A stretch of 64,000 nucleotides of DNA. Origin: Hemileia vastatrix. Lineage: Eukaryota; Basidiomycota; Pucciniomycetes; Pucciniales; Zaghouaniaceae. This document shows positions 29,275 through 54,989 of the stretch, one piece after another. The DNA lies in NCBI GenBank assembly GCA_030280995.1, contig JASXTE010000004.1, positions 16,457,501 through 16,521,500 of the forward strand, written 5' to 3'. The notes under the pieces are model-generated. The model saw nothing but the letters and a program-made list of their open reading frames with translations. It ran no database searches and was not told the origin of the DNA. The first letter of the stretch is position 1, and every line of letters starts with the position of its first letter. Both the position numbers and the translations under genes were made by a program.

Positions 29275-29287
29275 TGGGGGTCTTTCC
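29275..29287 (+). other. element B candidate primer-binding site
   Basis: TGGGGGTCTTTCC begins two bases after the LTR. TGG complements a tRNA CCA end. Which tRNA is meant cannot be told from this window. Confidence 0.55.
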
Positions 29288-29783
29288 TTATATTTTACTT
29301 ATTATTTAGTATAAGCCTTGGGACGTGATTTTTACCTTAGTACAACTCAAAATTAACCAAATATTTGGGTCTGCGGCATATTAGTGGGTCATCATAACTC
29401 ATTGATTGCGGAAAAGAACCCTTATAATAATTGTACTAATTTTTTATCATAAAAATTAGATATTTACAGTAGTAACTGTACCCAATATAAACCCAATTTC
29501 ACTTGGTATTTGGACACCAATATAACACCCAATAAAATTGGTATTTGGCTAAAGCTTGGGAAGCTAATTATTCACCCTTATAGAGGTCTAGTTAAACTTA
29601 TTATTATATTTTTAACAGATTTTTTCGAATTTTTCTTATATTTTATTTAAATAAATAAAGATATAAATTCAGGGTAAGCTCCATTGCTTTTTTATTAGTA
29701 ATATAATTACTAATATCTTTTGTCTACTAATTCCACAGAGTTTTTTCCTTTTGTAGACGTAAAATATTGTTATTCTGAACAAT
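29288..29783 (+). other. element B 5' leader
   Basis: About 500 bp of AT-rich sequence between the primer site and the gag-pol ATG. No ORF of note. It presumably holds the packaging and dimer signals. Confidence 0.5.
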
Positions 29784-32700
29784 ATGAGTGCTCCTCAGGA
29801 TAGTGTAAGTGAACAGCCTGCTTATAATACCAGGTCTAAAGCTAATAAAAACTTTCCAGGACATCACCATGGAGGGACAACAGTACCCCCAACCAGAAAG
29901 CATGAGTATAGAGGAAAAGGACGCCCTCTTAAAAAAGATAACTATCAAAAAGACGTCTCCTCCTCTTCAGGATCAACTGTCCCACCTGGCCAAACAGGTT
30001 CTGAAGCTAGAGGAATCAAAATCTCTCATGTTCAAAGAAGTAGAGCAGTTGCAAAACAATTGCAAGGTAGGATTTCAGCAGATGAATCAGGCAATGGCAG
30101 AATTAAAGGGAGGCCAGCCCAGTCAATCAAATCAGCAACCCCCTACCCAAGGAGGGTCCACTCACTCCCAGGAGAAAATCCTGGTAGACAAATGGAAATG
30201 GGACTGGTTTCACCAACAGTGGACAAGCCACAGTTGCAACAGGGATCCACCCCCTCATCTGACTTCCTCAGCTCACCCTTACAAGGGAAAAAAGCGCCAA
30301 AAATCAGGACTGGCAACCATCCCTTGGTAAGTAACTTACCCTCTCAGATTAGACATAATACTGATAATTACAATATAGGTAATTCTATTGATGTTAAATC
30401 TGTACAAAAAATAGAGGAGGATTTAAGAAATTTAGGTTTTAGAGTAGATACACCTGACTTGTCTTTTGTCCATAATAACAGTACTATATACAATGATAAT
30501 ACAGCTAATCCTCAGTTGCAACCACCTACTAGTGAGATGAGAAGTTCACAGGAGAGTGAGAGAATTGAAAAGGAGGACATGGAATATTTTAACAATAATC
30601 CAACTGTCCATAGAATTGTTTCAGCATTGTGGAATAGAATGACTGATTGTGAGGAACAGACAGTTAAGCTCACTAGTGATACAATTTCATCCTTAACATT
30701 GAACATTTCTCAATTAGCAACACGTAATAAAGAATTAGAGAAAGAACATTTGTCTCTAACTCTTAAATATGATTCATTAAGTAATAAATATAATGACCTT
30801 TCAAACAAATTTTGTGAGTTAGAAAAATTATATGAAACACACTTATTAAAGACTGAATCAAGAACAAAGTTATCTTTTGCACAGACAAATCAAAGTGTCT
30901 CTGAGTTGCTACAAAGATTAACTAAAGTTGAGATTGAAACTGCCAATCTACTAATGAACCAGGATAATCATAAGTATAATCAATATAATAATAATCCTTT
31001 CATTGGCAAAAGTGAATCTCATTCCTTCCCTATACCACCACAATTGAAACCATCTGGTGGTAGTGTCAAATCTGAAAATGTAAGTCACAAATCCGTGCAG
31101 GAAGAAATACAAGACCATTTATCAAAAGTAAATGAGTTGTTGAATTTACCTAAGATTAGTGAGATAAAATCCAATCAGAAGAACTGGCCTAAAATAGATC
31201 AGTACCCAACTTATGATGGGGAAGCCAGCTCTGATTGGCAACATTTTATTCAAAGAATTGACAACTTGAAATTCTCATATAAGTTACCAGATGAAGAGAT
31301 AACATCAAAATTAATTTCTTTATTTAAGGATGTTGCTTTATTATGGTTTGAAGCTGTCTTAAGTGAGGGTAGAGACTACTCTTGGGCTGAATGGAAACAA
31401 CTTATTGAAAAACAATTTGGAGGTTCTAAATTCAGGCTTACTCAGCAGAGACTGTATGAGAAGACTAGGTATAATCCGTTGAATGGTGACAAACCTATGG
31501 TATTTTTAATGAATTTAAACAAAATATTAAAAGCCATTGAGCCTCATATGGATTTTAACTTATGGAAAGATAAGATAATATACAAATTACCTATATCTGT
31601 CAGAGACATTGTTGTAGCTAGAACATTAAATGTTACTGAATATTCTGACTTTATTAATATTTGCAATGAAATATTATTAAACCATAAGTATGAATCAAGG
31701 TATTCCACTTATAAACAAAATGTTGAACCTGTAAAAACTCAGAATTCAAAAACACTTCAGGAGAAGCAGAAAAAACCTACTGCACCTGTAGTACCTAAAA
31801 AGTATGAAACAAATACTTGTTATAAGTGTAACAAACCTTGGGTAAAAGGTCACAAATGTGAGAAAAACATAAATATTGTTGAAAATCAACGTGAATCTGA
31901 AACTGAAACTGAAAAAAGTAAAGAATCAAGTGATTATGACAGCAATATCTCATATAGTGATGAAAATGAAGTCTGTATGTTGGAAGATGATTTGTCCATC
32001 TTTGAAAATCCAATATTAAATATGGACTCAAATGAATCTTTAATGAATTTTGAGGATGCTGAAATCATTAAGGATATACAAGCTGATAACTTTAGAATGA
32101 CACCTATCACGGTTCCAGCTATCATTTCTGGTGAAAATGTTAATATAGTATTGGACACAGGAGCTGCTGGTTCAGTTGTTTCCACTAATACATTACAGAA
32201 AATTGATAGTGAATATAAGTTTAAGCTTGAACCACTTCAGAATAAAAATTGGAGAGGTTTTGGATCAGTACTACACCCCATTGGTAAATACAAAGCTGCT
32301 GTTTTCTTTAAACACCAACATGGTTATGTAAGGGTAACTTGTGACTTTGTAGTAATGGATAATACAAATTGTAGTAACTGTTTTATCATTGGAAATGATA
32401 TTCTGACTAAATTTGGTGTAAACTTAGACCCTGCTAATAACAATTTTACAATTGGCATGAATGGTAAAAGGAAATTTAAAATAAATTCTTTTAACACAGT
32501 CTTACACATTGAGTCAGTAACAAATTCCCCGTCTAAAGGAAGAGAATCCAATGAGTTGGAACTTCTGGAAACAGAAATTTCAAAAGCATCATTTGGCACT
32601 CAGATAAGTGAAACTGAGAAAAATAATATTTTGGAATTAATTAAAGCTTTTCCAATGGCTTTTGCACATGGTACAAATGAACTTGGCCTTGTAAAAGATC

Positions 32701-35651
32701 ATGAAATGAAAATTAGTTTAACCTGTGACATGGATAATATTCCTGCTAGTCTTAAAAAGAAACCATATCCTGCTTCACCAATGAAGAGGAAAGACATAGA
32801 GAATAATATTAAGATGTTATTAAAGATGAACATTCTTGAGAAGGTTGAAACTACACCAAAATATTGTGTAATATCACCAGTGCTGATTTCTTATGAACAA
32901 GATAAAGCAAGACTGTGCGGTGATTATAGAGCATTAAATACATTTACAGTAGATGATATTTATCCCTTGCCAAGAATTGCCTCTATACATGCTACCCTTA
33001 AAGGTGCTAAATATATAAGTTGCCTAGATGGAAATAAAGGGTACCATCAAATTCCTGTTGAAAAGAATTCACAGAACTTTTTGTTGATAACAACACACAT
33101 GGGAATTTATAAGTATGTCAGAATGCCATTTGGACCAAAGAATGCTCCATCAGTATTTCAAAAGTTAATGGATACAACATTCCATAATGAAATGATTGAG
33201 GGATGGTTAATGGTATACATTGATGACATCATAGTGTTCTCTAAAAATTTTGATGAACACTTAATCCATTTAAGGAAAGTATTTCAGAAAATGGATGAAA
33301 TAAAAATGACCCTTGCATTGAAAAAATGTAAATTTGGGTTTGAATCTTTAAAAGTGCTTGGTCATATTGTATCTGGCTTACAAATATGTGTAGACCAAAA
33401 TAAAGTGGCTGCAATAAAGAATATTGGCATTCCCCAAAATGTGAAGGATGTACAATCTTTTCTTGGAATGTGTGGTTATTATAGACAATATATAAAAAAC
33501 TACCAATCAATTGCTGCACCACTGACCACACTGATAAAGAAATCAGAAGCTTTCATTTGGAATAATGAAAGACAACAAGCTTTTAATAAGTTGAAAGAAT
33601 GTTTAATGACAGCTCCTATCTTGGGATTACCAGATTTCCAATTACCTTTTGTATTATATACAGATGCAAGTTTTATTGGACTGGGTGCTGCTTTGCATCA
33701 AAAACAACTTATTGAAGGTAAAATGTCAGAAGTAGTAATCTGCTATATTTCACGTACTCTGAGAAGTGGTGAATTGAAATATGGTGCTACTCAACTTGAA
33801 TGTTTGGCAGTAGTATGGGCTCTTGAAAAGCTACATTATTACCTTGAAGACCAAAAATTTGAGTTAATAACTGACTGTAGTGCAGTTAAGTCACTCTTAA
33901 ACATGAAAACTCCTAATAGACACATGTTTAGATGGCAATTAGCTGTACAAGAATACAGAGGACGGATGACTATAACACATAGAGCAGGAACCTTGCACTC
34001 TAATGTAGATCTGTTATCTAGAGTACCTCTGCCTAATAATGATGATAATCCTGCTTATGTTCCTGAGTCAGAGATTATTAACATTTATGGCATTTATATT
34101 GTAGATCTTGAGGATGAATTTATGCAATCAATTCTTGATAATTATAATTCAGATCCTGACTTAAGTAAATTAACTACAATATTAAATGATCCATCTAATG
34201 CTTCAATGAATGTTTTAATAAAAACATTACCAGATAAGTATAAAGAGGCATTAGAAAAAGGAAAATTTTCCATTGAGGATGGTTTTATATATTACAGGAA
34301 AAAATTAAGTAATGTAATTATAATTCCCCCTTCAATGAAGGAGTTAATGTTAAGTATATGTCATGATGATATATTAGCAGGTCATTTTGACTACCATAAA
34401 ACATTAACCAGAGTAAAAAACACAGCTTGGTGGATCAACATGTCTGAGGATGTTCAGAAATATGTTGAAACATGTGATTCTTGTCAAAAATCTAAAAGAT
34501 TAACAGGAAAAAGAGCTGGTTTATTACAACAAATTGAGCAACCAAAAGCTCCATGGGAAATCATTAACATGGACTTTGTAACAGGTTTGCCAATAGCAGG
34601 GCATAAGAGTTATAACTCCTGCTGGGTAATTGTAGATAGATTTACAAAGATGTGTAAATTTATTCCAACCCACAAAGAGGTTTCTGCAAAGGACTTAGCT
34701 TTTTTATGGTGGACACAAATGTTAAATACAGCAGGTTTCCCCAAAGCAATAGTTTCTGACAGAGATCCTAAATTTACTTCTGAGTTCTGGACATCACTTA
34801 TGGATGTTTCAGGGTGTCAATTAAAACTTTCTACAGCACACCATCCACAAACTGATGGGCTAGCAGAAAGAATGATACAAACCTTAGAAGATATGATAAG
34901 AAGATACTGTGCTTTTGGTCTTAATTTTAAAGACAATGACAAATTCACGCATGATTGGGTAACCCTTATCCCAGGTTTAGAATTTGCATATAATAGTACA
35001 GTACATTCTGTCACTGGCAAAAAGCCATTTGAGTTATGGTTGGGTTATGTACCTAATACCCCTGCTAAAACTCTTAATAAGTTACCTAGATTAAATATTC
35101 ATCCAGGTACTAAATATTTTCTTCAGATGCAGGAATTATGCAGAAAACATGCTCAAGAATGTATAAATAAGGCTTTTGAGTATGAAAAGAAAAGATGGGA
35201 TAAAGCCCATAAAGAACAAATGTTCAAAGAGGGTGATGAAGTCCTTATTTCAACGCTACATTTCAATTTAAATGGTAATGTTAAATTGAAGGATCCATTC
35301 ATTGGACCATTTGTAGTTAAAAAGATGGTTGGTAATAATGCTGTTGAGGTTATTCTATATGCACCTTATGATAGAAAACATCCAGTATTTCCTATTTCTC
35401 TTATAAAACCATACCATTCTAATGATACTGCTCTCTTTCCAAGAAGATCAGGAAGGCATAAACAGCAACCTGAAGAAATAGTGGAAAAAGCAGAAATTGA
35501 AAAGATACTTAAAAAGAGACACCTTACAAAAGAAAAGGGAGTTGAGTATCTATTAAGATTTAAAAATAAGTCAAGTGAATATGACCAGTGCATTCCAGAA
35601 AATGAAATCTCTGATCTTAAAAATCTCTTGAAAAAATTTAAATCTAAATAA
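29784..35651 (+). CDS. element B Gag-Pol polyprotein, 1,955 residues, intact
   Basis: One frame encodes all functions. Gag occupies about residues 1-640 (N-T-R-S-K near the start, coiled-coil at 290-390, helical core from about 470). The zinc knuckle is C679, C682, H690, C692 (CX2CX7HXC). The protease has L-D-T-G-A-A-G-S with D791. RT has the catalytic Y1145-I-D1147-D1148. RNase H shows L-Y-T-D-A-S-F-I-G near residue 1292. Integrase has HHCC (H-D-D-I-L-A-G-H, C-D-S-C-Q from about 1525) and the triad D1597, D1659, E1695, a DD35E spacing. The C-terminus from about 1895 (E-I-E-K-I-L-K-K-R then Y-L-L-R-F-K) resembles a diverged chromodomain lacking the usual Trp. With no Gag/Pol stop or frameshift, Gag excess would need proteolysis, as in Tf1. 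The ATG follows AAT and is the first in the leader frame. No disabling change seen. Confidence 0.93.
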   Translation: MSAPQDSVSEQPAYNTRSKANKNFPGHHHGGTTVPPTRKHEYRGKGRPLKKDNYQKDVSSSSGSTVPPGQTGSEARGIKISHVQRSRAVAKQLQGRISADESGNGRIKGRPAQSIKSATPYPRRVHSLPGENPGRQMEMGLVSPTVDKPQLQQGSTPSSDFLSSPLQGKKAPKIRTGNHPLVSNLPSQIRHNTDNYNIGNSIDVKSVQKIEEDLRNLGFRVDTPDLSFVHNNSTIYNDNTANPQLQPPTSEMRSSQESERIEKEDMEYFNNNPTVHRIVSALWNRMTDCEEQTVKLTSDTISSLTLNISQLATRNKELEKEHLSLTLKYDSLSNKYNDLSNKFCELEKLYETHLLKTESRTKLSFAQTNQSVSELLQRLTKVEIETANLLMNQDNHKYNQYNNNPFIGKSESHSFPIPPQLKPSGGSVKSENVSHKSVQEEIQDHLSKVNELLNLPKISEIKSNQKNWPKIDQYPTYDGEASSDWQHFIQRIDNLKFSYKLPDEEITSKLISLFKDVALLWFEAVLSEGRDYSWAEWKQLIEKQFGGSKFRLTQQRLYEKTRYNPLNGDKPMVFLMNLNKILKAIEPHMDFNLWKDKIIYKLPISVRDIVVARTLNVTEYSDFINICNEILLNHKYESRYSTYKQNVEPVKTQNSKTLQEKQKKPTAPVVPKKYETNTCYKCNKPWVKGHKCEKNINIVENQRESETETEKSKESSDYDSNISYSDENEVCMLEDDLSIFENPILNMDSNESLMNFEDAEIIKDIQADNFRMTPITVPAIISGENVNIVLDTGAAGSVVSTNTLQKIDSEYKFKLEPLQNKNWRGFGSVLHPIGKYKAAVFFKHQHGYVRVTCDFVVMDNTNCSNCFIIGNDILTKFGVNLDPANNNFTIGMNGKRKFKINSFNTVLHIESVTNSPSKGRESNELELLETEISKASFGTQISETEKNNILELIKAFPMAFAHGTNELGLVKDHEMKISLTCDMDNIPASLKKKPYPASPMKRKDIENNIKMLLKMNILEKVETTPKYCVISPVLISYEQDKARLCGDYRALNTFTVDDIYPLPRIASIHATLKGAKYISCLDGNKGYHQIPVEKNSQNFLLITTHMGIYKYVRMPFGPKNAPSVFQKLMDTTFHNEMIEGWLMVYIDDIIVFSKNFDEHLIHLRKVFQKMDEIKMTLALKKCKFGFESLKVLGHIVSGLQICVDQNKVAAIKNIGIPQNVKDVQSFLGMCGYYRQYIKNYQSIAAPLTTLIKKSEAFIWNNERQQAFNKLKECLMTAPILGLPDFQLPFVLYTDASFIGLGAALHQKQLIEGKMSEVVICYISRTLRSGELKYGATQLECLAVVWALEKLHYYLEDQKFELITDCSAVKSLLNMKTPNRHMFRWQLAVQEYRGRMTITHRAGTLHSNVDLLSRVPLPNNDDNPAYVPESEIINIYGIYIVDLEDEFMQSILDNYNSDPDLSKLTTILNDPSNASMNVLIKTLPDKYKEALEKGKFSIEDGFIYYRKKLSNVIIIPPSMKELMLSICHDDILAGHFDYHKTLTRVKNTAWWINMSEDVQKYVETCDSCQKSKRLTGKRAGLLQQIEQPKAPWEIINMDFVTGLPIAGHKSYNSCWVIVDRFTKMCKFIPTHKEVSAKDLAFLWWTQMLNTAGFPKAIVSDRDPKFTSEFWTSLMDVSGCQLKLSTAHHPQTDGLAERMIQTLEDMIRRYCAFGLNFKDNDKFTHDWVTLIPGLEFAYNSTVHSVTGKKPFELWLGYVPNTPAKTLNKLPRLNIHPGTKYFLQMQELCRKHAQECINKAFEYEKKRWDKAHKEQMFKEGDEVLISTLHFNLNGNVKLKDPFIGPFVVKKMVGNNAVEVILYAPYDRKHPVFPISLIKPYHSNDTALFPRRSGRHKQQPEEIVEKAEIEKILKKRHLTKEKGVEYLLRFKNKSSEYDQCIPENEISDLKNLLKKFKSK
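29869..30330 (+). CDS. overlapping +1-frame ORF in element B gag (153 codons)
   Basis: The ATG at 29869 sits in a strong initiation context (A at -3, G at +4). The frame runs +1 to gag-pol. The product starts M-E-G-Q-Q-Y-P-Q, then has Leu-heptad-like helices (L-S-H-L-A-K-Q-V-L-K-L-E-E) and a Gln/Ser/Pro-rich tail. A comparable ORF lies at the same place and frame in element A (4774-5001, minus). By contrast, the main frame here is low-complexity and basic. Either two proteins are encoded or one frame is relic. Function unknown. Confidence 0.45.
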   Translation: MEGQQYPQPESMSIEEKDALLKKITIKKTSPPLQDQLSHLAKQVLKLEESKSLMFKEVEQLQNNCKVGFQQMNQAMAELKGGQPSQSNQQPPTQGGSTHSQEKILVDKWKWDWFHQQWTSHSCNRDPPPHLTSSAHPYKGKKRQKSGLATIPW

Positions 35652-35754
35652 TACTGTTCATTCAGTATATGTATTATAAAAAATTATTTTTTATTTTTTA
35701 TTTCATTCCTTAAGGTTAATTAAAATGTCTTAACATTTTTTTTATTGTTTTTTT

Positions 35755-35766
35755 GGGGTGAGGGAG
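35755..35766 (+). other. element B polypurine tract
   Basis: GGGGTGAGGGAG directly abuts the 3' LTR, preceded by a T-rich run. It is the expected plus-strand primer, with one T interrupting the purines. Confidence 0.8.
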
Positions 35767-36925
35767 TGTCAGCCTAAATATCCTTAGGACTGAGTATTTC
35801 TTATGCTTAAAATAAGATAACCTTAATTAGATTAAGCTTATATCTTAAAAATAAGGTTAAAATAATAATATATATTATTTTATTATATATATATATAATT
35901 ATTATTCTATTATATAATTTATAATAGTTTAAATAGCTTATCCATGGCCTAATAATACTTATTAAGGTGTTAATGGAGTCATAATATACTTATCTTAAGT
36001 GATATGAAGTAATTATTGACATACATAAGCTTATATGTATACATAAATCTCATATTCAGTGAAATATGCAGTATATTATGTATATTTAGGTATATAAGTG
36101 GGTTTTAGCCCCTTAATAGCCTATAACCTTTGTTTTTCTGCTTATTTTAGGTCATATGGACGAAATCAGTGGATCCACAGCGCCTACAGAAGCATAGACA
36201 CCTATATCAGGCACATACACCCAGTTTGGACAACTAAAAATACTTCCTTGGATGGTTATTCACGGATTTATGGGTTGGAAATATGTTTTTGGGTTAATGT
36301 GGATGCTTGGGGATGTTATTGGGGGCTTGGACATTTTATTTGTTTCCTTTATATACTTTTAGTTTCATTAAATCTCTTTTTGATCATTTATTTTACCTGT
36401 TTCTTTATGGTATCCGCTTTTATCTGGGATTTCTATTTATGGTATGACTCTGTGTTATTATTAATAGTGATGGAGGGTCCTTACTGGAGGTCTGGGTGTT
36501 GAAACTGCTTGAAGTGGACGCCATGGGGAGGTGATGGGCCCTCACAGTGCTGTAATTGCCGGGGATAGCAGTGACATCATCTGGATTGAAGGTCTGTGCA
36601 CTCCAGTGGATTTGGGTATAAGTAAGGAGGGATTTTGACGGTTTATTATAATCATTCAATTACTACACTACAATTATTAACATTCAGAAATATATTATAA
36701 AGCCCTTATAAATTGATATTATCTTTATAATAGCTCTAACTATATTTTATTCTTCTATTTTCCACCACTAGCACGCATTTAAATCCAAGTATTGTGAGTT
36801 TAATTTGAGTATAACTATTCTATTAGTCTTCCCCAGAGGTTTAATCACTAAATCATTTATTAATAAGTAGTAGGACCATAAAATAACACTATTATATCAT
36901 ACTTATATACTAGACTGTACTGACA
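35767..36925 (+). repeat. element B 3' LTR
   Basis: 1,159 bp, the partner of 28096-29272, lacking 18 bp between ACTACAC direct repeats. The 134-codon frame at 36098-36502 is the twin of one in the 5' LTR and is not treated as a gene. Confidence 0.96.
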
Positions 36926-36930
36926 CTCAT

Positions 36931-37893
36931 GGTCTTCCTCTGAAGGATCCTGAGAAGGTGAACTGGGATGCTGAGGTTCCTGGGGCCTAGTTGGAGCAGT
37001 GAGATTGTGGTTGTTGTTGTGGTTGTTATTTCTGTTGGATTCAGCTGGAGGAGGTGCTGGTGATGGAGTACCAGGGTTGTTAAAGGATGGAGCAGGAGAG
37101 GGGGATTTGGAAGCAGACTGCTCTCTTCTGGATGAAGAATTTGAAGAGATGGAACTGTCAGAAGAGTAGTTGGCTGACAGAGGAGAGGTGTATTTTTATT
37201 GTCTTAGTTGGGGACAAAGTTTTTGTTGTGGAGCAGTGTGTGGTGTTCTGGTTTCTTCTTGGGGTTCTCTGGAAGTTCTCTTAGAAATCTGGTAAATTTT
37301 GGTGCTTTTGGACTTTGGAAGGGTGGATTGCATTGCTCTGGGAGAAGTAGGAGGTAGTTGGGTTGAGTTGTTGTTGTTGTCTGGATGAATTTGGCTATTT
37401 TATGGCCGTTTTTGGAGGTTTTGGCCCTGATTTTCACTGTTTGGTGAGGCGGGCGGGCCGCCTGGACGCGGTCTAGAAGCCTGGGAGTTGATTTTGAAGC
37501 TTTTGGAGCTAATTTGGCGGAGATAAAAGCAGTTTCTTGTGAGGCTAAGGCTGGTCTTTTGGGAAGAGTGCGGGAAGCTGAGCTTCTGGATCTTCTGGAA
37601 GGAGCAGAAGATAGAGAGGAAGTGGAAGGACCAAGCTCTGGGGATCTGGTAGGGGATCTGGAGATGTATTTGTGAGAAGGAGAAGGTGGAGGAATAGGGT
37701 AGTTGGCGTCTCTGTCACATCTTTTCTTTTTGGAATAACAAGAGTCACAAGCCCTGTTGTAGAATTTGGATTCAGGATTTGGAAGAGTGAATGTGCAAGG
37801 TCTGCACATGTGGATGCACTGTTTGAAGGCATAGTCCTTGGGAGCAGTGAAGCAAGGGAGAGTAGCAGGGTTAACATCAGGAGATCCAGCCAT
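36931..37893 (-). CDS. element C antisense gene 1, 5' part: Cys-rich nuclear-factor-like protein
   Basis: The ATG at 37893 opens 229 codons to a stop at 37204. The product begins M-A-G-S-P-D-V-N-P and has C-I-H-M-C-R-P-C then C-D-S-C-Y-S-K-K-K-R-C: the second half matches the CX2CX6C half of a Zn2Cys6 motif with basic residues, while the first half departs from consensus (CX3CX2C, then 15 residues). A Ser/Pro/Arg-rich tail follows. A second open block (about 37177-36931) is one frame off and leads, across element B, into the exons at 28095-27504. An unfound intron or a one-base indel must link the two. A run of short repeats (38047-38620) lies just upstream. Role unknown; DNA binding is inference. 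Confidence 0.55.
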
Positions 37894-38046
37894 GATCTGT
37901 GGTGAGAAAAGATGATGAAAAGGGATAGGAGGAGATTTTTGTCAGTGATGGGTAGATGATGAAGTGAAGGTGGAAGTTCAGCAGGTTGGCTGTAGAGGTG
38001 TGCTGCATGAAATTGGCTGCGTCCATTTTATGCGAAATTCCGTCAG

Positions 38047-38640
38047 TCCGTCAAGACTCTAAACTGAAAAAGCTATATTATCAAGATCAGTCCATCAAGA
38101 CTCTAAACTGAAAAAGCTATGGTATCAAGACAGTCCATCAAGACTTTAAACTAAAATCTGGTTTCTGTTAGTCCTCCAAGACTTTAAACTGGCTGGTTTC
38201 AAGATTTTATCAAGGTAGTCCGTCAAGACTTTAAACTGAACACTGTTGTTAGTCCATCAAGACTTTAAACTGAACACTGTTGTTAGTCCCCCAAGACTTT
38301 AAACTGAGGGTTGTAAGTCCCCCAAGACTATAAACTGAGGAAAAAGTTTTTGTTGTTGGAGTTGGTTTTGAAAGATTGGTGGAGGGTATCCACAGGGGGA
38401 GCCTCCGAATTTAGGAAAGGCAAGTTTGGGGGTAATTGATGGGCTGGCTGCTCTATTTACAATTACCCCAGAATGTTAGTTTTTTCTCTGTGTCTTAATG
38501 TGGTTGATCTCTGGTTCTGGGTTTATGATTTAGATTTTTGAGTCCCCCAAGACTTTAAACTGAGGGTTTTTGAGTCCCCCAAGACTATAAAATGAGGATG
38601 GTCCCCCAAGACTTAAAACTGAGGGTTGTTTGTGGTTACA
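38047..38640 (+). repeat. array of 11 AGTCC(A/C)(T/C)CAAGACTTTAAACTGA motifs with the third H1 hairpin
   Basis: Copies start at about 38047, 38089, 38132, 38170, 38217, 38251, 38285, 38316, 38540, 38569 and 38599. The consensus is near GTCCCCCAAGACTTTAAAC. Between the eighth and ninth lies H1 copy 3 (GGGGTAATTG / CAATTACCCC, 38429-38469). The array lies immediately 5' of antisense gene 1 and 3' of antisense gene 2, so it could be a promoter or leader for the former. Confidence 0.85.
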
Positions 38641-38657
38641 TCCTATAGAGGGTGTGG

Positions 38658-39352
38658 TCAATTTTTCTTTTCTGAATCAAACTCAAGTACTAGTAGAATT
38701 ACAGAGGGAATCAAGAGATGAAATGAAGTGTTCAGAATTAGCCTTGAACTGGTGAATGAGGTGTCTTCAGTTCTCAATGTCCTATGGATCTCTAGCAGGA
38801 GTGGATTGGAAGTAGTGAAGCAGAAGTTGTTTCTGTTGAGATTGTGTTGTTGGAACTTGGCCTTGATAGTGGGAAAGTGCGTTGGTGTTGGTGGTGCGAT
38901 GGATCCTACATTGTTATCATCACTATCAGAAGAGGAAGGAACTGAGAAGTCATCAGTTTTAAAGTTGAAGGAAGGAATGAATGTTCTTTACCATCAGATG
39001 GACCAGGGATGGGGGAACTAGTTGTTTTATGGGTTGTGGCACTCTTCTGGGAAGGGTGGAGCTTTTTGATTAATCTGGGTATCAGGATGGATGGCCTAGA
39101 TCTTTTGGTGCTGGCAGAAGAAGGACCAGGTTGAGGTGGAGGTGAATCTGTTGTGGAAGAAAGTGGACCAGGTCTGTGGCAGGTCTTCTTTCTGGAGTGG
39201 CAGACATTGCAGGACGTTCTGTATGGATGGACAGGTGGTGTCATGGCGCAGATTAAATTATTGTCGATGCAGTATTGGCAGGGGCCCATTTCAGAGGCAG
39301 ATTTGGGAAGGAGGTTAAACATGGTGGTTGGATGAAGAAATAATGTGGACAT
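38658..39352 (-). CDS. element C antisense gene 2: Zn2Cys6-pattern protein, two exons
   Basis: The ATG at 39352 (or M at 39322) opens exon 1 to 38992. It holds C-Q-Y-C-I-D-N-N-L-I-C, then 12 residues, then C-N-V-C-H-S-R-K-K-T-C, i.e. CX2CX6CX12CX2CX6C, the spacing of fungal Zn2Cys6 DNA-binding domains. A Ser/Pro-rich linker follows. A 50-nt intron (38991-38942; GTAAAG donor, AACTGAT branch-like site, CTCAG acceptor) joins in phase to exon 2, which starts with an acidic stretch (S-D-S-D-D-N-N) and runs to TGA at 38658-38660. The start lies within 20 bp of the 3' LTR, so an antisense promoter in or next to the LTR is likely. It may regulate element or host transcription, but this is inference. 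Confidence 0.55.
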
Positions 39353-39360
39353 TCTTAATT

Positions 39361-39370
39361 GGAGGGAGGA
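39361..39370 (+). other. element C polypurine tract
   Basis: GGAGGGAGGA directly abuts the 3' LTR start at 39371, as expected for the plus-strand primer. Confidence 0.85.
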
Positions 39371-40463
39371 TGTGGTCTTCCAACATTGGCAGGGGCATTT
39401 GTTGTGTGATTTGGCGCTGTTTGTGCATGTCTTAATTGACATCTGTTAAGGAATTTGGTATTTTTCTGGTTTCATCCCGTGGATATTGGGTCTGCAGGTA
39501 TGCGGGTTCTATCATTGGATAGCCCTGGTTTTTCTCTATATTCTATGTCTTGTAGACATTTTTCATATTCTGAGTTTTAAGGGGTCATTTCCTCATTTTT
39601 CATTTATAAAAGATTGCTGTTTAATTTTGTTTTTTGTGTTTTACGGGCTAACCTTAAGTCTTAGGGTTAAGTGCTTAGTACCATTGGATAGAGCTAATTT
39701 TTCTTTATATTTCATGTCACAATGTTGTTATAGTGAAATTCCGTGTTTTAAAGGTTTTAGTAGTTGTAGCTAATTTTTCTAAGTAGATTAGTGGTTTTTA
39801 TTGGTTTTCTGGCTTCAGGGAGGCCGGGCCGCTTCAGGCGGGATCTCCGACGTTGGGCGGCCCGCCCACCTCTGTTTTAGGAGGTTGGGGAGCACTCCAG
39901 GAGGGTTTTTTATGCAATTTGGCAGGTACAGGCACCAGATTGGTGGGTGCGCATGGGCTCTTAGTTAGTGGTCTGTGTGTACACAGTGAATAAGACAGTT
40001 TGGGGCAACCTTAATCATCATACAACCATCCAGAGGTGATCTCATTGTTCCTCACTCAGTTTTCACTGTTTTCTGGCCACAATTGGCTGTGTTTGTTGCA
40101 AGTGAGTTCTTCATTTAACTTAACTTTGGCAACTGTTTTCTCTGTTATAGTCTTGCAAGCTATAGCAAGTATTATTGCTGTCTCTGGTGTGGATTCTCAG
40201 CCTACATCAAGTATCTTTGCTTTTTCTGGTGTGGACTTTGTTCTACATTTCAGTTCTTTGGTCTGGTAGTCTATCTGGGGACTACTTTCTTGGCTCATCA
40301 AGCAGTCAAGTGTGTTAAAAAGGGGCTTTAGCAAAACAGGAACCAACTTACTTTAGCAAGTAAATCTCACTCTATTTTTCTAAAGGGACAGGGGATTTTC
40401 TCTCTGGTTTTTCTCCAACTCCCTTGGTCAAGGCCTATAGCTAGTACTATAGGATTGTCTACA
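39371..40463 (+). repeat. element C 3' LTR
   Basis: 1,093 bp, the partner of 18212-19304. The copy of the target site after it reads ACAG. Confidence 0.95.
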
Positions 40464-42208: not shown

Positions 42209-43447
42209 TTAAATTTTCTCTTTTATCTTCTCCCGAACCAATCCCTTCATCTTCTCCAAAATTTCCCTTATCTCCTTTCTACATTTCTCAAAATTCTCCC
42301 CCTCTCCTACCGGAATCAACTCCTCGGCTACATCGAAGGAAGCGGCATCGATAATGTTATCAATCTTGCCGCTGAAGTCTTCAATATATTTTGCTCGTCG
42401 AACCTGACGAGGTTTCTTCGACCAAACTTGATTGAGGGTCTCTTTGTTTTCCTCCCTCGAGGTAACAGTTGGTAATCTACCCTCCACCGACACTGCCACT
42501 TCCACCGCAGTGGGTCCCACAAGGGTCGCTTCCACATTTGAAGCTTCAGTCGTAGGGACCTTGATGATGACGTCTGAATTCTAAAACAGAATCATCAGTA
42601 ATTAAAATTATGAATTATAAAAAGGTGAACTTACACCACACAATATGGGGGGCGGACTTGCTAGCAAGTCCGCAACCTTGGACCCAAACTCACCATAGAT
42701 TGAACACACATTGAGCTATTGATAAAGGAACCATACAATCAGGGATGAACACCACTCAGTAGAACAGTTTTAGGTGGGTGTTCAAGTAGAGTTCAGTATG
42801 GGTTCAGTATGAGTTCAGTCTGAGTTCCATCTGAGTTCCATCTGAGTTCAGGTTGAGAACTTGCTAGCAAGTCCACCCCCTATATTGCGTAGTGTTACTT
42901 TGAAGACTGGGTCAGGCTCCAAAAATAATCTAGGAGTGACCTTCTCTGCCACCTCCCTTTCCTCTTTGTCATCTTCGATGACCACCCTTCGTTTTTTTGG
43001 GGTTTTCCTCGAGATGGGAATTTCTTCCTCCTCCTTGACCAATTTGTCAACTTCCTCCTTGACGACCCCCCTCTTGTTCGCAGCCCTAGCCACCCAGATG
43101 TTCACATCATCTTCAACTTCTTCCTCATTTTCCCCCACCAATTGATCGTCCCCAATGGACACATCCCAGATGTCCTTGACTACTTCCTTTGTTTTAGGGA
43201 ACACCCAATACTTCGTCTTAGTAAACTGACTCTCAATGTTGGCATTCTTCGCTAAGGCGTCACACACCACTCTTCTCCATCGGCAAAACTTGCACTTCTG
43301 GAGAGGCCCTCTTGTCGCCGTGCTCTCCACGCAGAAATACTCCATCGACTCGCAAGCCGTGCAAGTCTTCGAAAATTGCCGTGTGACAACACCCCCATCT
43401 GCTTTAGGGTGTGGAGGCGTGGGAGTCGGTGTAGGGAAATCCGTCAT
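42209..43447 (-). CDS. element D antisense gene: Zn2Cys6-pattern protein, two exons, MITE in the splice donor
   Basis: Exon 1 runs from ATG 43447 to 42899 (183 codons, phase 0). After P-T-P-T-P-T-P-P-H-P it has C-T-A-C-E-S-M-E-Y-F-C, 12 residues, then C-K-F-C-R-W-R-R-V-V-C: CX2CX6CX12CX2CX6C, the Zn2Cys6 spacing. A central K-Y-W-V-F-P-K-T-K-E-V-V block and acidic stretches follow. Exon 2 runs from 42580 to the stop at 42209 (phase 0), ending in a Lys/Glu-rich helix. Without the MITE the intron would be 54 nt (GTAAGT donor, TTTTAG acceptor). The MITE sits after GTAA, changing the donor to GTAACA, so read-through now adds a short tail and stops at 42848. Element E has an orthologue. Function unknown; a DNA-binding regulator is inference. 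Confidence 0.7.
42634..42894. mobile_element. CACTA-like MITE (copy 2) in the element D antisense gene
   Basis: A 261-bp sister of 24763-25011. The ends are CACCACACAATATGGGGGG and reverse-complement CACTACGCAATATAGGGGG, with TSD TTA (42631-42633 and 42895-42897). The left palindrome CGGACTTGCTAGCAAGTCCG (42653-42672) is perfect. Confidence 0.9.
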
Positions 43448-43534: not shown

Positions 43535-43542
43535 CTCTTATA
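43535..43542 (-). promoter_or_regulatory. possible TATA box of the element D antisense gene
   Basis: On the minus strand TATAAGAG lies about 90 nt upstream of the ATG at 43447 and 11 bp outside the LTR. At the matching place E has TTTAAAAC. The promoter assignment is inference from position. Confidence 0.35.
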
Positions 43543-43552: not shown

Positions 43553-44355
43553 TGTCATGCGTCACGTGACACTCGAGGCAAAAGTAGCTCATTAAATCAA
43601 TACTAAAGGGTTCAAATCCATACTCGAAGCGCAGAAAGCAACTCTCCATAGCAACTGCGACTTTCCTTTGTGTACTCGCTATTCAATCGCGCTAGCCTAA
43701 AACTCTAAATCTAAATTAGTCAATCTCTCAATAGTGTGTCTTAGTCTTTTTCCCAATAAGCAACGCACAGCGCAATAGTTAATATAATAGTACATTAAAA
43801 GGTTTATGAAATGTCTGTGGGTTATTAAGGGGTAGTGAGCATGGACGGAATGGTTAGTGAAGGATTAAGGGGTTAACGGATAATAGTGAGGAGGGTCCAG
43901 GTGTAACGGATATATTTTAAATGGTTTGTGGTGTGCGGAATAGTGGATGAGTATGAGGTCAATGTGAGGAGGAGTAAAGGATATAAAAGGGGCTGGGTTT
44001 TTTGTTCGACATTCCTTAGAATTAAATTATAAAACGTATTTATAGTTAATAGTGATAAAACTCTAAGTGAAAATCATTATTATTGTATCTTTCTTTATTT
44101 TCTCAATAGTCATATCTAAATCCTAAATCTTTGATTGTTGAGTTTCCAACCCTTTGTGAGATCTTAAGAATTTTAATATTACCGTTCAATTATATTAGAA
44201 TCCTTATCAAACATAACTCGAAGCAGTAGTTCTTCCTTCGAGTCATCTTCAAATCACTTCCTCGAACTATCCCTCTGTACTTTGAAGAAGTATCTGAACC
44301 TTTTATCTCACTTGCAGGAACATCCTCGACCTTGTGCGTAGGTCGTCCGGTGACA
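43553..44355 (+). repeat. element D 3' LTR
   Basis: 803 bp, the partner of 6283-7084, followed by TSD TAAAG. It keeps the TATAAAAGG and self-primer sequences. Confidence 0.95.
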
Positions 44356-47414: not shown

Positions 47415-48224
47415 TGTCACACGCCACGTGACACTCAAGGCAAAAGCAGCTCATTAAATCAATAATACAGAGGTCTAAATCCATACTCAAAGCGCAGAAA
47501 ACAATTCTACATAGCAACTGCAACTTTCCTTTGTGTACTCACTATTCAACCGCACTAATCTAAACTTTAAATCTAAATTAGTAAATCTCTCAATAGTGTG
47601 TTTAGTCTTTTCTTTGATAATTGACGCACAGCGCAATAGTTAATGTAATATTCCTCAAAAGTTTTATTAAGTATCTGTGGGTTATTAACAGGGATAGTGA
47701 GCATGGACGTGATGGTTAGTGGAGGATTAAAGGGCAAACAGATGTTAGTGAGGAGGGTCCAGGTGTAACGGGGTTTATTTTTGATGGTCTGTGGTGTGCG
47801 GAATGATGGATGGATATGAGGTCAATGCGAGGAGGAGTAATGGATATAAAAGGGGTTGGATTTTGGTTCAATATTTCTTTAGAATTAAATTATAAAACGT
47901 ATATATAGTTAATAGTGGCAATGCTTCAGGTTAAATCATTATTATTGTACATTTCCTTATTTTTCTCAGTAATCATTTCTAAATCTTGAATCTTTGATTA
48001 TTGAGTTTCCAACCCTTTGTGAGATCTTAATAATATTAATATTACCTTTAAATTATATTAGAATTCTTATCAAACATATCTTGAAGCAGTAGCTCTTCCT
48101 TTGAGTCATCTTTGAATCACTTCCGCAAACATTTCCTCTGTGCTTCAAAGAAGTTTCTGAACTCCTCCCTCCATCTCACTTTCCAGGAACACCCTCAACC
48201 TTGTGTGTAGGCTGTCTGGTGACA
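47415..48224 (+). repeat. element E 5' LTR
   Basis: 810 bp, TGTCACACGCCACGTGACA at the start and TGACA at the end. TATAAAAGG at 47845-47853 and self-primer AGAATTAAATTATA at 47881-47894 are kept. Confidence 0.95.
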
Positions 48225-48225
48225 G

Positions 48226-48239
48226 TATAATTTAATTCT
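48226..48239 (+). other. element E self-priming primer-binding site
   Basis: TATAATTTAATTCT, one base after the LTR, exactly complementary to 47881-47894, as in D. Confidence 0.75.
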
Positions 48240-48300
48240 CCGTAGTTCTCATTCTTTGGCACTACTATGTCCTTTTTTTCAGGTGTTTTAAATTCTTTAA

Positions 48301-49473
48301 ATGGCACCTGTTCAACGCACTCCTCCTATGGGCGCTACTACTAGGGCTTGCACCAGAGGCTGGCCAACAGCCACACGGCCTGTTTCCTGCACTCACTCCC
48401 TAGAAACTCTCGACCTTAGGGAACGGGGACACTCAATCCAATCTGTAGAAGACATACCCCAGTATTTTGATGATTCTAGCGAGGAAGAAAAAGGAGAGGA
48501 TACAATGCATGAGGCACCATCTGCCCCTGCTACTCATCCTTCTGGTAAACCTTTGAAACCTGGACCATCTAATTCTCTGGAAGACTTCATGAGACTTTTG
48601 TTGAAAACCCTTTCAAATCCAACGTCTTTGGAGGGATAAAAATTCAAAACTCCTTCCATGAAATCTCCTGATAAATTTGATGGAGAACATCCAGACAGAT
48701 TGCGCCCCTTCTTGCAAACCTGCAAGCTCCTGTTCCATAACAACCCTTGAACCTTCAATAACAACCAATCAAAGGTTGTTTACGCTTCTTCATTTCTAGC
48801 CAGCAAAGCAGCAAGTTTTTTTGAACCTTATCTTCTCATGCTCTCTTCGACAGAAACCCACTTACTCATTAATAACTGGGATAAGTTCAAAGACCAACAC
48901 TTTATGTTGTTCTGTGACCCTAATGAAACTGAAAACCCAGAAATTGAACTGGATTTCCTCCGCATGAGTGATAATGGTAAAGCCTCTGAATATATTTCGA
49001 ACTTCAGAGCAATTCAAACTTGAGTAGGTTTGAATGATGCTGCCCTCAAGTATCATTTCAAAAAGGGACTTTTTTTGAGGATTCTGGATCAATTAAATCT
49101 TCATGGTCAGAAGATGACTACTTTAACCGATTTAATTGATTGAACCCTTGAAATCAACAGCGTTTACCAAGGACGACTACAAAATTGTTGATACACCAAC
49201 AAATCTCAAGCCCTAAATTTTAAATTGGGACCTTCTTCACACCCACAGACAACTCAATCCAAACCCAATAAGGGAAAGGACAAACCTCAACCAAAAAGCT
49301 CAACCCCAGGAAATATCAGTCAGGTACTGGATCCAAAAGGGGAACTTAAAGAAGCTGAGAGGAAGAGACGAGCAGATAATGGGTTATTTATGTATTGTGG
49401 GGGTAAGCTCAAGCTAGAAGATTGTGTAAAGTTGAAGGAAAGAGGAGGTACTAGTTCAAGGTCAAAAAACTAG
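48301..49473 (+). pseudogene. element E gag pseudogene
   Basis: Same M-A-P-V-Q-R-T-P-P start as D. Stops: TAA near 48636 (S in D), TGA near 48748, TGA near 49021 (CGA in D), TGA near 49141. The knuckle has decayed to F-M-Y-C-G-G-K-L-K-L-E-D-C, losing the first Cys and the His. Ends K-N-stop at 49473. Confidence 0.85.
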
Positions 49474-49487
49474 TAGATAGCTTACTT

Positions 49488-52400
49488 GTGTGCAACGCAA
49501 ACTATCTTATTTCTCCCAGTGGACAGAACCTCCATGTCTTAAGGACTGGAGTTGCCTTAAACCACTTGAGATTCATACTTTTAAAGGAAGATACCCCCTT
49601 CAGTTGTCTTATAGACTCTGGAGCTTCAATTTCTTTTTTCTGTTTATCTTTTTCCGAGAATTTAAAGCTGATATTCACAGATATCGATCAAACTCCAATT
49701 TATTTGGTTGAATCAGAGGAACCCAAATATTGGGTAAGTAAGAAAGTTTTATGGGTTTTCAACTTTCCAAATTTTCCCCCCTTGGAGTGGGAATTATCAG
49801 TCTTGGAAGCCCCAATAATGGACAATACCATCCTTGGCCATGACTTTTTAACGCATTGCAATCCTGAAATTGATTGGTCACGGGGATTGATCACCCCACG
49901 CACTAAGTATATTTCTGATTCTTCAATGCAGGTCAATAGGGAGTTAAACAACCCGCCTGACAATGTCCTGCTAGAGGACAAATCTCTGCTAGATGACTTT
50001 CAAGCATCTGATCTTTCTCTAAATGAGAAATTGGCTAACCCTTCTAGCTCGATGACTTCAATCAAAGAGGATTTAAATTTCCTCAAAGTAATCGAATTAT
50101 GCTCTCTCAATTCTGGTCTTCCCTCGACAGATTCTCTCAAAGATGATGAGGACAACCAAATCAATGTTGAAGCCATTAAATCGACTCTACTGGAAATCTA
50201 TCATGATTTCCTCAATGTTTTCTCAATCCGCAAGGCCAATAAGTTACCACCTCATCAACCCTACAACCATCAGATAGAGTTAATAGGTCCAGTACCTCCA
50301 GCAGGTCCTGTCAATTCTTTGTTGAAGGACAAATATCAAGTTCTTCAAGACTACATTGCAGAGAATGTAGCCAAAGGTTTCATCAGAGCCAGTAAATCTC
50401 CAACCGGCTCCCCTGTTCTTTTTGTAAAAAAAAAGATAGTAGCCTTAGGTTGTGTGTTGACTATAGAAAGCTCAACACAGTCACAAATAATAATGCATAT
50501 CATGTTCCTCTTATGTCATTGCTTCTTACTATTTTTAATGGTGCTAATTTCTTTTGTAAAATTGATCTTAGAGATGCTTATAATCTTATTTGCATCGCGG
50601 AAGGTCATGAACCACTGACTGCAATTCACACTAGATTTGGTAGTTTTGAATATTTAGTCATGCCTTTTGGATTATGTAACACACCATCTACTTTTCAAAC
50701 TTTTTTAATGACATCTTTCAAGATGTTGTCAAACAGTTTGTTGTCGTCTACTTAGACAATATTTTAATTTTCTCAAAGACACTAGATGAACATATTCATC
50801 ATGTTTGACAGGTTCTAAATTGCCTTTGAGATCACGGACTCTATGCCAAGCACAATAAATGCAAATTCCATTTTAAATCTATTGATTTTTTGGGGTTTAC
50901 GTTGTCCACTGATGGTTTAGTAATGGATGACAAAAAGGTCTAAAAAGTCCTGGAATGGCCTGAGCCCAAAACCATTAAATCCCTCCAAGGATTTTTGGGT
51001 TTTGCCAATTTCTATAGAAGATTTATTAAATATTACTCTAAAACTATTTCCAATATTACTTCTCTTCTTAGAAAAGATATTCCTTTTTGTTTTTATTTCT
51101 ACAACACAAAAGGAATTCAAAGCATTGAAGACTGCGTTTACCACAGATCCAATTCTTCAACACTTTGATCCTTCTGCTTCGACAATGGTCCAGACAGATG
51201 CTAGCAATTATGCTATCGCAGGGGTCATTTCTCAATTCAATCCTGAAACAAAATTGTTTTATCCTGTTGCTTTTTAGTCACGCAAACTCATTGCGGAAGA
51301 ATTAAATTATGAAATTCATGACAAAGAGCTTCTAGCTATTATTCATTGTCTTAAAAAATGGGGCTCTTTTCTTCTCAACCCAGATAGTCCTTTCCAAATC
51401 CTAACTTACCATAATGCTTTGAAATACTTTATGTCTTCCAAAGTGTTAACCAGGCGTCAAGCCAGGTGGGCTGAATTTCTGTCTGAATTTCTTTTTTTTA
51501 TTTCCTATTGTCCAGGTAAGAACTGTATTGTCCCAGATATCCTGTCACGTCAGGACGACTTTTACCCACAGCGGGGGGACGCATTTGCTGACAAGAACCC
51601 AGCAAATGTGAAAGAAATCTTCAACAAATCAATGTTAACAACTCATCAACTTAATTTGATGACAATTCAATTGTTTCAAAATCCACTATCCAACATCCTT
51701 GAAGCTCAGTCGAAGGACAATTATTGTTTAGGGTTAAAAGACAAAATACTCTCAAAGCAAGGGGCCAAAAGATTTAGTGGTGAATCAGGTCTATTAGTTT
51801 TCAAAGGTAGAGTAGTCATACCCAACAACAATAAAATAAAATTATGGATTTTCAACAATCAACATGATTCTTCATTAGCTGGTCATTTTGGGGTTGATAA
51901 AAACTTCCAGCTAATAGTGAGGGATTTCTTCTGGCCAGGAATGACCAGAGAAATCAAGGCCTATATAAGATCTTTTTACGAATGTAATAGGAATAAGGCT
52001 CCCCCTCACCAGAAGCATGGGTTGCTTCAACCACTTCCTATTCCCTCTAAAACTTGGGAATCTTTATCGATGGATTTTATTTCTCAACTTCCTCTTTCTA
52101 ATAATTTTGATGCTATATTAGTAATAGTAGATAGATTTTCAAAAATGTCTATTTTCATTAAAAACACTACTACTGCTACAGCAGAAGATTTTTCAAAATT
52201 GTTTCTAGAGTATGTATTTTCAAAACATGGCTTACCTAATGATATTATTTCAGATAGAGGCTCATTGTTTGTATCCACACTCTGGACTCAATTGTGTTGA
52301 CAACTCAATATCACAAGGAATCTCTCCATGGCCTATCATCCTGAAACCGATGGGCAAACGGAAAGGGAAAACCAAATCCTTGAACAATACCTTCAAATGT

Positions 52401-53118
52401 ATGTCAGTTACCAACAAGAAAATTTGACCACATGCTTACCATTGGCCAAATTTTCTTATAATAACTCAACTCATTCTTCACACAACAATCTCCCTTCAAG
52501 ACTGTGTATGGAAGACATCCTTGATTCAACTCTATCCATGTAGGAACTAGTCATCCTGCGTAAAATTATCTTTGAACCATATCACGACTCCAAGAAGAAC
52601 TTAAATCAAAATTGGAATTAGCGATTTGAAGGTACAAGGAACAAGCCGACAAACATCAACAATCTGCTCCTTCCTTCAAACCAGGCAACAAAGTATGGCT
52701 CAACGCACAAAACATTTGAATAACTCGACCATCAAAGAAACTAGCCGAAAAATGCTTGGGACCATTCAAAATTGACTCCGAAGTCTCTAAAACTGCATTT
52801 CAACTCAAGCTACCTCCTAAATGGCAGGCTATTCACCCTGTTTTTTACGTATCTCTCCTGGAACTGGCTCGAGAAACATACCCGGGCAAGAACCAACCTC
52901 CTCCGGAACCGGTCGAAGTAGAAGACCATCTAGAGTGGGAAGTAAGACATATCCTTGATTCAAGAATGCACAAGGGAAAACTTCAATACCTCGTGGAGTG
53001 GGAAGGCCTCCTTGATGACTCAGACAAAACATCCTGGGAACCAGCCATCAATGTTTCTAACGCCCCTGAACTCCTAAAATCTTTTCATCTTAAATATCCT
53101 TTAAAACCAAAACCTTAG
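49488..53118 (+). pseudogene. element E pol pseudogene (protease, RT, RNase H, integrase, chromodomain)
   Basis: Protease: C-L-I-D-S-G-A-S near 49610. RT starts in frame, shifts near 50430 at an A-run, and has the active site as Y-L-D-N near 50745 (second Asp lost). RNase H: T-D-A-S-N-Y-A-I-A-G near 51200, with a stop near 51275. Integrase runs 51419-52300 with M-D-F-I-S-Q-L near 52073 and I-S-D-R-G near 52250, then shifts. The chromodomain at about 52916-53066 is intact (L-Q-Y-L-V-E-W-E-G, S-W-E-P). Numerous C-to-T type changes. Non-functional. Confidence 0.88.
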
Positions 53119-54885: not shown

Positions 54886-54989
54886 AATACAAGAAAAAAT
54901 AATAATTAATAAATGAAGGAGTCAGAGAAAGTAGTGTGGGAAGAATACGTCTCACACTCAACAAGGCTTGCGTTTTAAACCCGGGAATC

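What the first reader, a model, noticed from the sequence alone, without database searches (positions are those of the whole stretch)
42209..43447. Spliced antisense Zn2Cys6-type gene carried by a chromodomain gypsy family
Elements D and E both hold, between pol and the 3' LTR on the opposite strand, a two-exon gene whose product has CX2CX6CX12CX2CX6C, the spacing of fungal Zn2Cys6 transcription factors. Exon phases fit GT-AG introns of 54-57 nt, and the protein is conserved between D and E although the elements are old. An accessory antisense regulator in a Ty3/gypsy element would be a new kind of fungal retroelement gene, possibly a Tat-, Rex- or host-control-like factor.
Basis: partly seen in the sequence, partly recalled or inferred. 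Interest (0 to 1): 0.9.

Follow-up and report, generated by a model that had tools for sequence, protein, structure and literature searches.

The report
Antisense cysteine-rich gene in fungal retrotransposons
Jumping genes in what looks like a rust fungus carry an extra gene written backwards near their right end; two diverged copies show clear signs that evolution has preserved its protein, and another, very different jumping gene nested beside them carries similar backward reading frames, but what the protein does is unknown.

Summary
The antisense gene is real as a coding sequence. In D two exons join into an open 306-codon frame. Between D and E, exon 1 differences by codon position are 47/27/95 of 183 each, dN is about 0.2 and dS about 2, and the one indel is 3 nt, against 12 indels in the neighbouring spacer. 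E's copy is decayed; D's intron is 318 nt because a MITE sits on the donor. New: F, a very different LTR element (INT 21% identical to E's), has two antisense Cys-rich ORFs at the same place, one with the same CX2CX6CX12CX2CX6C spacing. Fourfold sites differ at 32/52 in the antisense exon but 5/129 to 28/138 in gag-pol: the cassette has an older, separate history. Not supported: Zn2Cys6 membership. Scores are below cut-off and 3 of 10 Cys-fixed shuffles also match, one better than the real segments. Antisense accessory genes are known in plant Retand/Grande and fungal Boty (brtn), so this is a new variant of that kind. Expression, splicing and function are untested.

The parts
42899..43447 (-). 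D antisense gene, exon 1 (183 codons, ATG at 43447; Cys motif 43262-43363)
42581..42898 (-). D predicted intron, 318 nt, GT..AG, with branch-like ACTGAT near the acceptor; contains a MITE; splicing not shown
42634..42894 (.). CACTA-ended MITE inserted on the donor site; TAA duplicated (42895-42897 / 42631-42633)
   Evidence: BLAST core 42640-42893; exact ends read by eye
42209..42580 (-). D antisense gene, exon 2 (ends TAA)
43537..43542 (-). [quoted passage not shown]
   Evidence: candidate promoter by inspection only
54334..54885 (-). E antisense gene, exon 1 (one in-frame stop near its end; Cys motif 54700-54801)
54277..54333 (-). E intron, 57 nt, GTAAGT..AACTGAT..TTTTAG; splicing not shown
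53946..54276 (-). E antisense gene, exon 2 (frameshifted, decayed)
6283..7084 (+). D 5' LTR (target duplication TAAAG at 6278-6282)
43553..44355 (+). D 3' LTR (target duplication TAAAG at 44356-44360)
47415..55798 (+). Element E, full length, target duplication AAAAG; LTRs 47415-48224 and 54990-55798
52720..53118 (+). E pol end: SH3_Tf2-1 and chromodomain; D-E identity drops just after this stop
18212..40463 (+). Element F, another LTR element of Ty3/gypsy domain order, nested in D; LTRs 18212-19304 and 39371-40463, 97.4% identical
38984..39322 (-). F antisense ORF 1 (CX2CX6CX12CX2CX6C at 39179-39280), next to the F 3' LTR; frame breaks further on
37204..37893 (-). F antisense ORF 2 (CX3CX2CX15CX2CX6C, basic second triad)
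27923..27990 (-). Probable intron of F antisense gene 2 (68 nt, GTAAGT..ACTGAT..TAG), beyond nested element G
   Evidence: link to ORF 2 is inferred
27504..27922 (-). Probable last exon of F antisense gene 2
   Evidence: link to ORF 2 is inferred

Best explanation
D and E carry an accessory protein gene on the strand opposite gag-pol, between the pol stop and the 3' LTR. Shown by sequence comparison: it is a protein-coding frame that was under purifying selection, and it belongs to a stretch whose history differs from the rest of the element. Inferred: one intron; transcription backwards from a promoter at the edge of the 3' LTR; and a nuclear protein with an N-terminal six-cysteine metal-binding module, an acidic middle and a charged C-terminal helix (the last features judged by eye). 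The most likely role is regulatory, binding nucleic acid or chromatin to tune the element's transcription or silencing, as proposed for the antisense genes of plant Retand and Grande. That coding and selection are right: about 0.93. That it is a nuclear regulator of the element: about 0.45. The score given is for the statement as a whole.
For: Codon-position bias of differences 47/27/95, with position 2 the most conserved in the antisense frame, as expected of coding DNA. Exon 1: LWL85 dN 0.192 and dS 2.25, ML dN 0.228 and dS 2.02. Each of the other five frames carries stops in both copies. One 3-nt indel in 552 columns of exon 1 against 12 indels in 899 columns of the adjacent spacer. All six Cys conserved at 67% protein identity. 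Same strand, same place and same exact Cys spacing in F. Fourfold-site divergence 32/52 against gag 28/138, PR-RT 5/129, RH-INT 8/98 and SH3-chromodomain 9/61, with identity falling from 0.96 to 0.58 right after the pol stop: a separable cassette. TATA-like box about 90-95 nt before the ATG in both.
Against: Only two copies of the D/E gene are available, one of them decayed; no transcript data. The sense frame whose third positions coincide with the antisense ones also gives a low ratio (NG86 dN 0.227, dS 1.27), so position bias alone does not choose the strand; that frame has 2 stops in D and 1 in E within exon 1, yet it holds E's 185-aa sense ORF. No homologue in 5.8 billion proteins at E up to 10, although gag-pol relatives are there (1479 hits). 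D's KKRR patch reads KKWK in E, so a nuclear signal there is not conserved. AlphaFold models are uninformative (mean pLDDT 34 and 55). No CGG/CCG pairs of the classical zinc-cluster kind in the D/E LTRs. D's donor site is disturbed by a MITE, so splicing in D is unproven. Element G (LTRs 98.4% identical) has no room for such a gene, so not every element needs it.
Confidence: 0.5

Rival explanations
1. A protein-coding accessory gene whose product does something other than regulate transcription: for example a nucleic-acid chaperone, integration-targeting or particle factor, or an antagonist of host silencing.
For: All the coding evidence applies equally; six-Cys modules also occur in other nucleic-acid- or protein-binding domains (general knowledge); no DNA-binding family is recognised above cut-off.
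Against: The plant antisense products with some known property are nuclear (Grande) or predicted to bind DNA (Retand).
Confidence: 0.35
2. A genuine Zn2Cys6 transcription factor captured from the host, possibly with its two triads in swapped order.
For: Exact CX2CX6CX12CX2CX6C in D, E and F ORF 1; sub-threshold Zn_clus matches of the excised segments, 13.0 bits (D), 19.2 (F1) and 17.1 (F2); the second triad of D and F2 and the first triad of F1 align to the opposite half of the profile.
Against: All below the 21-bit cut-off; 3 of 10 Cys-fixed shuffles also match Zn_clus, one at 20.9 bits; no hit for the E segment; the residue after the second Cys is Glu in D and E, where canonical members have a basic one (recalled).
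Confidence: 0.12
3. The antisense transcript itself matters (double-stranded RNA, silencing control) and the open frame is incidental.
For: Antisense RNA can feed small-RNA silencing, as PMC7264820 discusses.
Against: Codon-position bias, dN much below dS and the frame-preserving indel point to selection on a protein.
Confidence: 0.03

Closest known systems
brtn, the antisense gene of Boty-like chromodomain Ty3/gypsy elements (Botrytis, Sclerotinia)
   Same: Fungal gypsy element with an extra antisense gene between pol and 3' LTR (PMC7264820); a Boty-like element with gag, RT, IN and CHROMO domains plus brtn-106 (PMC4227169 passage).
   Different: Ascomycete host; no BRTN sequence was at hand, so homology, Cys motif and introns could not be compared. 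The founding paper (Zhao 2011) was seen only as a title in reference lists.
Antisense aORFs of plant Retand, Grande and RIRE2 elements (TRP28 domain, GENE23)
   Same: Position, orientation, conservation in copies; [quoted passage not shown] nuclear (Grande) or predicted DNA-binding (Retand) product.
   Different: No TRP28 hit here; instead a six-Cys motif and probable introns; fungal; D/E are chromodomain elements while Retand is a non-chromovirus lineage.
HTLV antisense gene (HBZ)
   Same: Antisense gene expressed from a promoter in the 3' LTR (HTLV antisense promoter mentioned).
   Different: HBZ is a bZIP protein (recalled); no bZIP match here; no transcript evidence here.
Fungal Zn2Cys6 (Zn_clus, PF00172) transcription factors
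   Same: Cysteine count and spacing.
   Different: No profile match above cut-off and no similarity beyond Cys spacing against shuffles.

Membership tests
Zn2Cys6 (PF00172) | Six Cys with CX2CX6CX5-12CX2CX6-8C spacing (spacing rule recalled) | tested here: met
   D, E, F ORF 1 exact; F ORF 2 has a different first triad
Zn2Cys6 (PF00172) | Profile score above the curated cut-off (21 bits) | tested here: not met
   Whole D none; D segment 13.0, E segment none; F1 17.0 whole and 19.2 segment, F2 8.3 whole and 17.1 segment; halves: F1 first 14.8, F2 second 18.1, other six none
Zn2Cys6 (PF00172) | Similarity beyond Cys placement | tested here: not met
   3 of 10 Cys-fixed shuffles match Zn_clus at 11.9, 12.6 and 20.9 bits (10 of the 15 shuffles made were submitted)
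Zn2Cys6 (PF00172) | Binuclear zinc cluster fold | tested here: inconclusive
   AlphaFold2 mean pLDDT 34.4 (D exon 1 with E) and 55.5 (F1 alone)
Antisense accessory ORF class (aORF-3R) of LTR retrotransposons | Conserved ORF antisense to gag-pol, between pol and 3' LTR, inside a full-length element | tested here: met
   2 of 2 D/E copies in the window hold it, one decayed
Antisense accessory ORF class (aORF-3R) of LTR retrotransposons | Antisense transcription from its own or an LTR promoter | not testable with these tools
   no RNA data; TATA-like boxes only
Plant Retand TRP28 antisense proteins | TRP28 domain (PF04195) | tested here: not met
   no PF04195 hit at E up to 10 for D, E exon 1, F1 or F2
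Boty BRTN | Sequence homology to BRTN | not tested
   no BRTN sequence at hand; the protein searches found no relatives of D/E at all
Ty3/gypsy chromodomain elements (the D/E host element) | PR-RT-RH-INT order with a C-terminal chromodomain | tested here: met
   D: RVP_2 2.2e-6, RVT_1 4.3e-19, RNase H, H2C2, rve. E: RNase H, H2C2, rve 9.6e-7, SH3_Tf2-1, Chromo 1.3e-12; its PR match is weak (0.018) and no RT match was found in the piece scanned

The most novel reading that the evidence does not exclude
Rust-fungus Ty3/gypsy elements of deeply different lineages share a swappable antisense cassette that encodes a six-cysteine, probably zinc-binding nuclear regulator. The cassette moves between element lineages by recombination independently of pol: a fungal counterpart of retroviral antisense regulators, with a new protein type.
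Probability: 0.3. Interest if true: 0.8.

Novelty: new variant of a known kind. Interest (0 to 1): 0.6.

Why it matters
What antisense accessory genes in LTR retrotransposons do, and where they come from, is open: PMC7264820 says that their functions, and the origin of most of them, are unknown. Here is a case with measurable selection (dN/dS about 0.1 on one pair), a metal-binding-like motif, probable introns, and signs that the gene travels as a cassette and recurs in a very different element. If confirmed across the genome, it turns 'function unknown' into something that can be tested with strand-specific RNA data.

Tried and rejected
Chance ORF or mirror of a sense ORF: rejected, with a caveat. 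E has a 185-aa sense ORF opposite exon 1. In that frame third positions coincide with the antisense ones, so it also shows a low ratio (NG86 dN 0.227, dS 1.27); but within exon 1 it has 2 stops in D and 1 in E, and its second position would be less conserved (47) than its first (27) (mapping of positions worked out by hand).

Swapped-order Zn2Cys6: attractive from the profile positions, but dropped after the shuffle control.

Zinc-cluster binding sites in the LTRs: none in D/E; each F LTR has 6 overlapping CGG/CCG pairs against about 1.8-2.0 in shuffles, at one G+C-rich spot, not taken as evidence.

Structure prediction gave no usable model, so no fold search was run.

Homologues: protein search with D and with a D+E alignment: none at E up to 10. 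Viral-contig scans with E RH-INT, D+E and F ORF 2: none. PDB by sequence: none.

Literature: searches returned no papers. Searches (12 listed of 12; 15 of 117; 12 of 28; 1 of 1) listed papers, of which none shown had a title or abstract start about antisense genes in basidiomycete elements; I did not read them.

Numbers set aside: the exon 2b line came from an alignment cut out of frame; the value (dN 0.197, dS 2.19, 62 codons) stands instead. The exon 2a value (dN 0.498, dS 1.85, 47 codons) includes about 8 frameshifted codons that the aligner placed wrongly. NG86 dS for exon 1 is saturated and YN00 failed for it, so LWL85 and ML values are quoted.

Full report
WHERE IT LIES. The window is a nest of LTR elements. 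D (6283-44355) and E (47415-55798) are copies of one Ty3/gypsy family; E's pol ends in a chromodomain. Both keep 5-bp target duplications, TAAAG and AAAAG (read). Their LTR pairs are 98.9% and 93.9% identical. D is split by other insertions, among them F (18212-40463; LTRs 97.4% identical over 1093 bp), itself split by G (28096-36925; LTRs 98.4% over 1177 bp). A tnp2-type transposase with a weak Plavaka match lies at 10360-12045.

HOST. A control protein search with E's RH-INT piece gave 1479 hits at E up to 1e-10. Of the 120 listed, nearly all rows that carry an organism name are Austropuccinia psidii, the best at about 50% identity, and one is Puccinia sorghi. I infer a rust fungus (Pucciniales); the species is not identified.

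THE OBSERVATION. On the minus strand of D the exons 43447-42899 and 42580-42209 join in frame to 306 codons. The E counterpart starts at 54885 and has a 57-nt GT-AG intron (54333-54277). E carries an in-frame stop near the end of exon 1 and a frameshifting 20-nt gap in exon 2. D's intron is 318 nt: a MITE with CACTA-type ends and a TAA duplication landed on the donor, so that a GTAA stands on either side of it. Using the inner one would leave stops in the exon.

IT IS CODING. D-E differences in exon 1 fall 47/27/95 on codon positions 1/2/3 (183 each; chi-square p 3.8e-10). Exon 2 shows 24/26/50 of 103-104 each, in an alignment that includes the frameshifted stretch. For exon 1, LWL85 gives dN 0.192 and dS 2.25, and ML gives 0.228 and 2.02. 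For the usable end of exon 2, NG86 gives dN 0.197 and dS 2.19 over 62 codons. Exon 1 has one indel, of 3 nt, in 552 columns; the spacer between gene and pol has 12 indels of 1 to 21 nt in 899 columns and no position bias (72/72/79). The spacer is still alignable (71% identity against 52% for shuffles). ORF lengths beat Markov controls in D and E (0 of 500 each) and less strongly in F (p 0.006). Caveat: the sense frame whose third positions coincide has NG86 dN 0.227 and dS 1.27, with 2 stops in D and 1 in E; what favours the antisense frame is its unbroken state in D, the usual order of positions (second most conserved), the intron-bounded exons in phase, and the Cys motif.

A CASSETTE WITH ITS OWN HISTORY. 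Along E, identity to D is 0.87-0.96 through pol (from 49361), falls to 0.58 in the window that begins 12 nt after the pol stop (53118), stays at 0.58-0.73 through spacer and antisense gene, and returns to 0.81-0.87 in the LTR. Fourfold sites differ at 32/52 in the antisense exon, but 28/138 in gag, 5/129 in PR-RT, 8/98 in RH-INT and 9/61 in the SH3-chromodomain piece. Selection on the proteins does not readily explain this, because the contrast is in silent sites. For comparison, D-E dN/dS is about 0.25 in gag, about 1 in PR-RT (1.0 to 1.1), about 0.5 in RH-INT and 0.2-0.3 in the last piece by LWL85, YN00 and ML. The likely reading is recombination between element lineages that each carried the gene (inference; template switching during reverse transcription would do it). 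The spacer, at 71% identity, looks less diverged than the silent sites; I have no explanation beyond its low complexity.

THE SAME THING IN ANOTHER ELEMENT. A six-frame scan of the whole window for a loose six-Cys pattern gave three hits: D, E, and 39179-39280 in F, all minus strand, all exactly CX2CX6CX12CX2CX6C; 30 Markov-1 random windows gave none. The F ORF 1 start lies 19 or 49 nt from the F 3' LTR edge, depending on which ATG is used (counted by eye). F has a second antisense ORF, 37893-37204, with a similar basic CX2CX6C half. Beyond nested G, 28095-27504 holds a probable 68-nt intron and a last exon; that these belong to ORF 2 is inferred. F's pieces give PR, RNase H, H2C2 and rve matches in Ty3/gypsy order; no RT match was found in the pieces scanned. 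F's integrase is 21% identical to E's over 157 residues and 25% to G's over 360. The 200-residue tail of F's INT ORF has no chromodomain match. G, with a stop-free 1962-codon pol frame, has 115 bp between its stop and its LTR and no such gene. So the feature is neither universal nor confined to one family in this window. Beyond the Cys, F ORF 1 and D are only 14% identical in the alignment, so common descent is not shown. F ORFs have one copy here, so selection on them is untested.

IS IT A ZN2CYS6 PROTEIN? Spacing yes, membership no. Full D: no Zn_clus hit at E up to 10. Excised segments: D 13.0 bits, E none, F1 19.2, F2 17.1, cut-off 21. The alignments put the second triad (D, F2) on the first half of the profile and F1's first triad on the second half, suggesting a swapped order. 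The control did not support that: of 10 peptides with Cys kept and other residues shuffled, 3 matched Zn_clus, one at 20.9 bits. The match is explained by Cys placement. Structure models were too poor to use.

MECHANISM. Shown: a conserved antisense protein frame in a separable stretch. Inferred: transcription from the 3' LTR edge (TATAAG at 43537-43542 in D, TTTAAA at 54974-54979 in E), splicing, nuclear action. D's basic KKRR patch is KKWK in E, which does not help the nuclear reading. Most likely a regulatory protein of the element, mainly by analogy with plant antisense genes; other accessory roles remain open.

WHAT IS KNOWN. [quoted passage not shown] PMC11963269 (passages) reports antisense TRP28 ORFs in 97% of Retand clusters and predicted DNA binding. 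PMC4227169 (passages) describes a Boty-like element with CHROMO domain and brtn. PMC5987419 (passage) reports a Monilinia chromodomain transcript with similarity to Pol and BRTN. [quoted passage not shown] Hence: new variant of a known kind. My literature searches for this arrangement in basidiomycetes showed no report (empty; listings only in 13, 62, 71 and 76); the library lacks most subscription papers.

Noticed in passing
6283-6300, 43553-43570, 47415-47432, 54990-55008: Both outer 5' LTR ends read TGTCACACG and both inner 3' LTR starts read TGTCATGCG, the same two-base difference in two independent insertions; 6 of D's 10 LTR difference columns lie in the first 25. LTR copying should make them identical; unexplained. 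F's two LTR starts agree by eye.
   Followed up: partly
42634-42894, 24768-25010, 46957-47050: A CACTA-ended MITE family; one copy sits on the splice donor of the D antisense gene, one (89% identical) is in F's pol region, and a partial match lies at 46957-47050.
   Followed up: partly
29763-35651: Element G holds a stop-free 1962-codon frame with RVP, RT, RNase H and INT matches and a chromodomain match just under cut-off, between LTRs 98.4% identical, so it may be a fairly recent insertion.
   Followed up: no
[quoted passage not shown]
   Followed up: no
10360-12045: Transposase with tnp2 (Transposase_21) match and a weak Plavaka match inside D.
   Followed up: no
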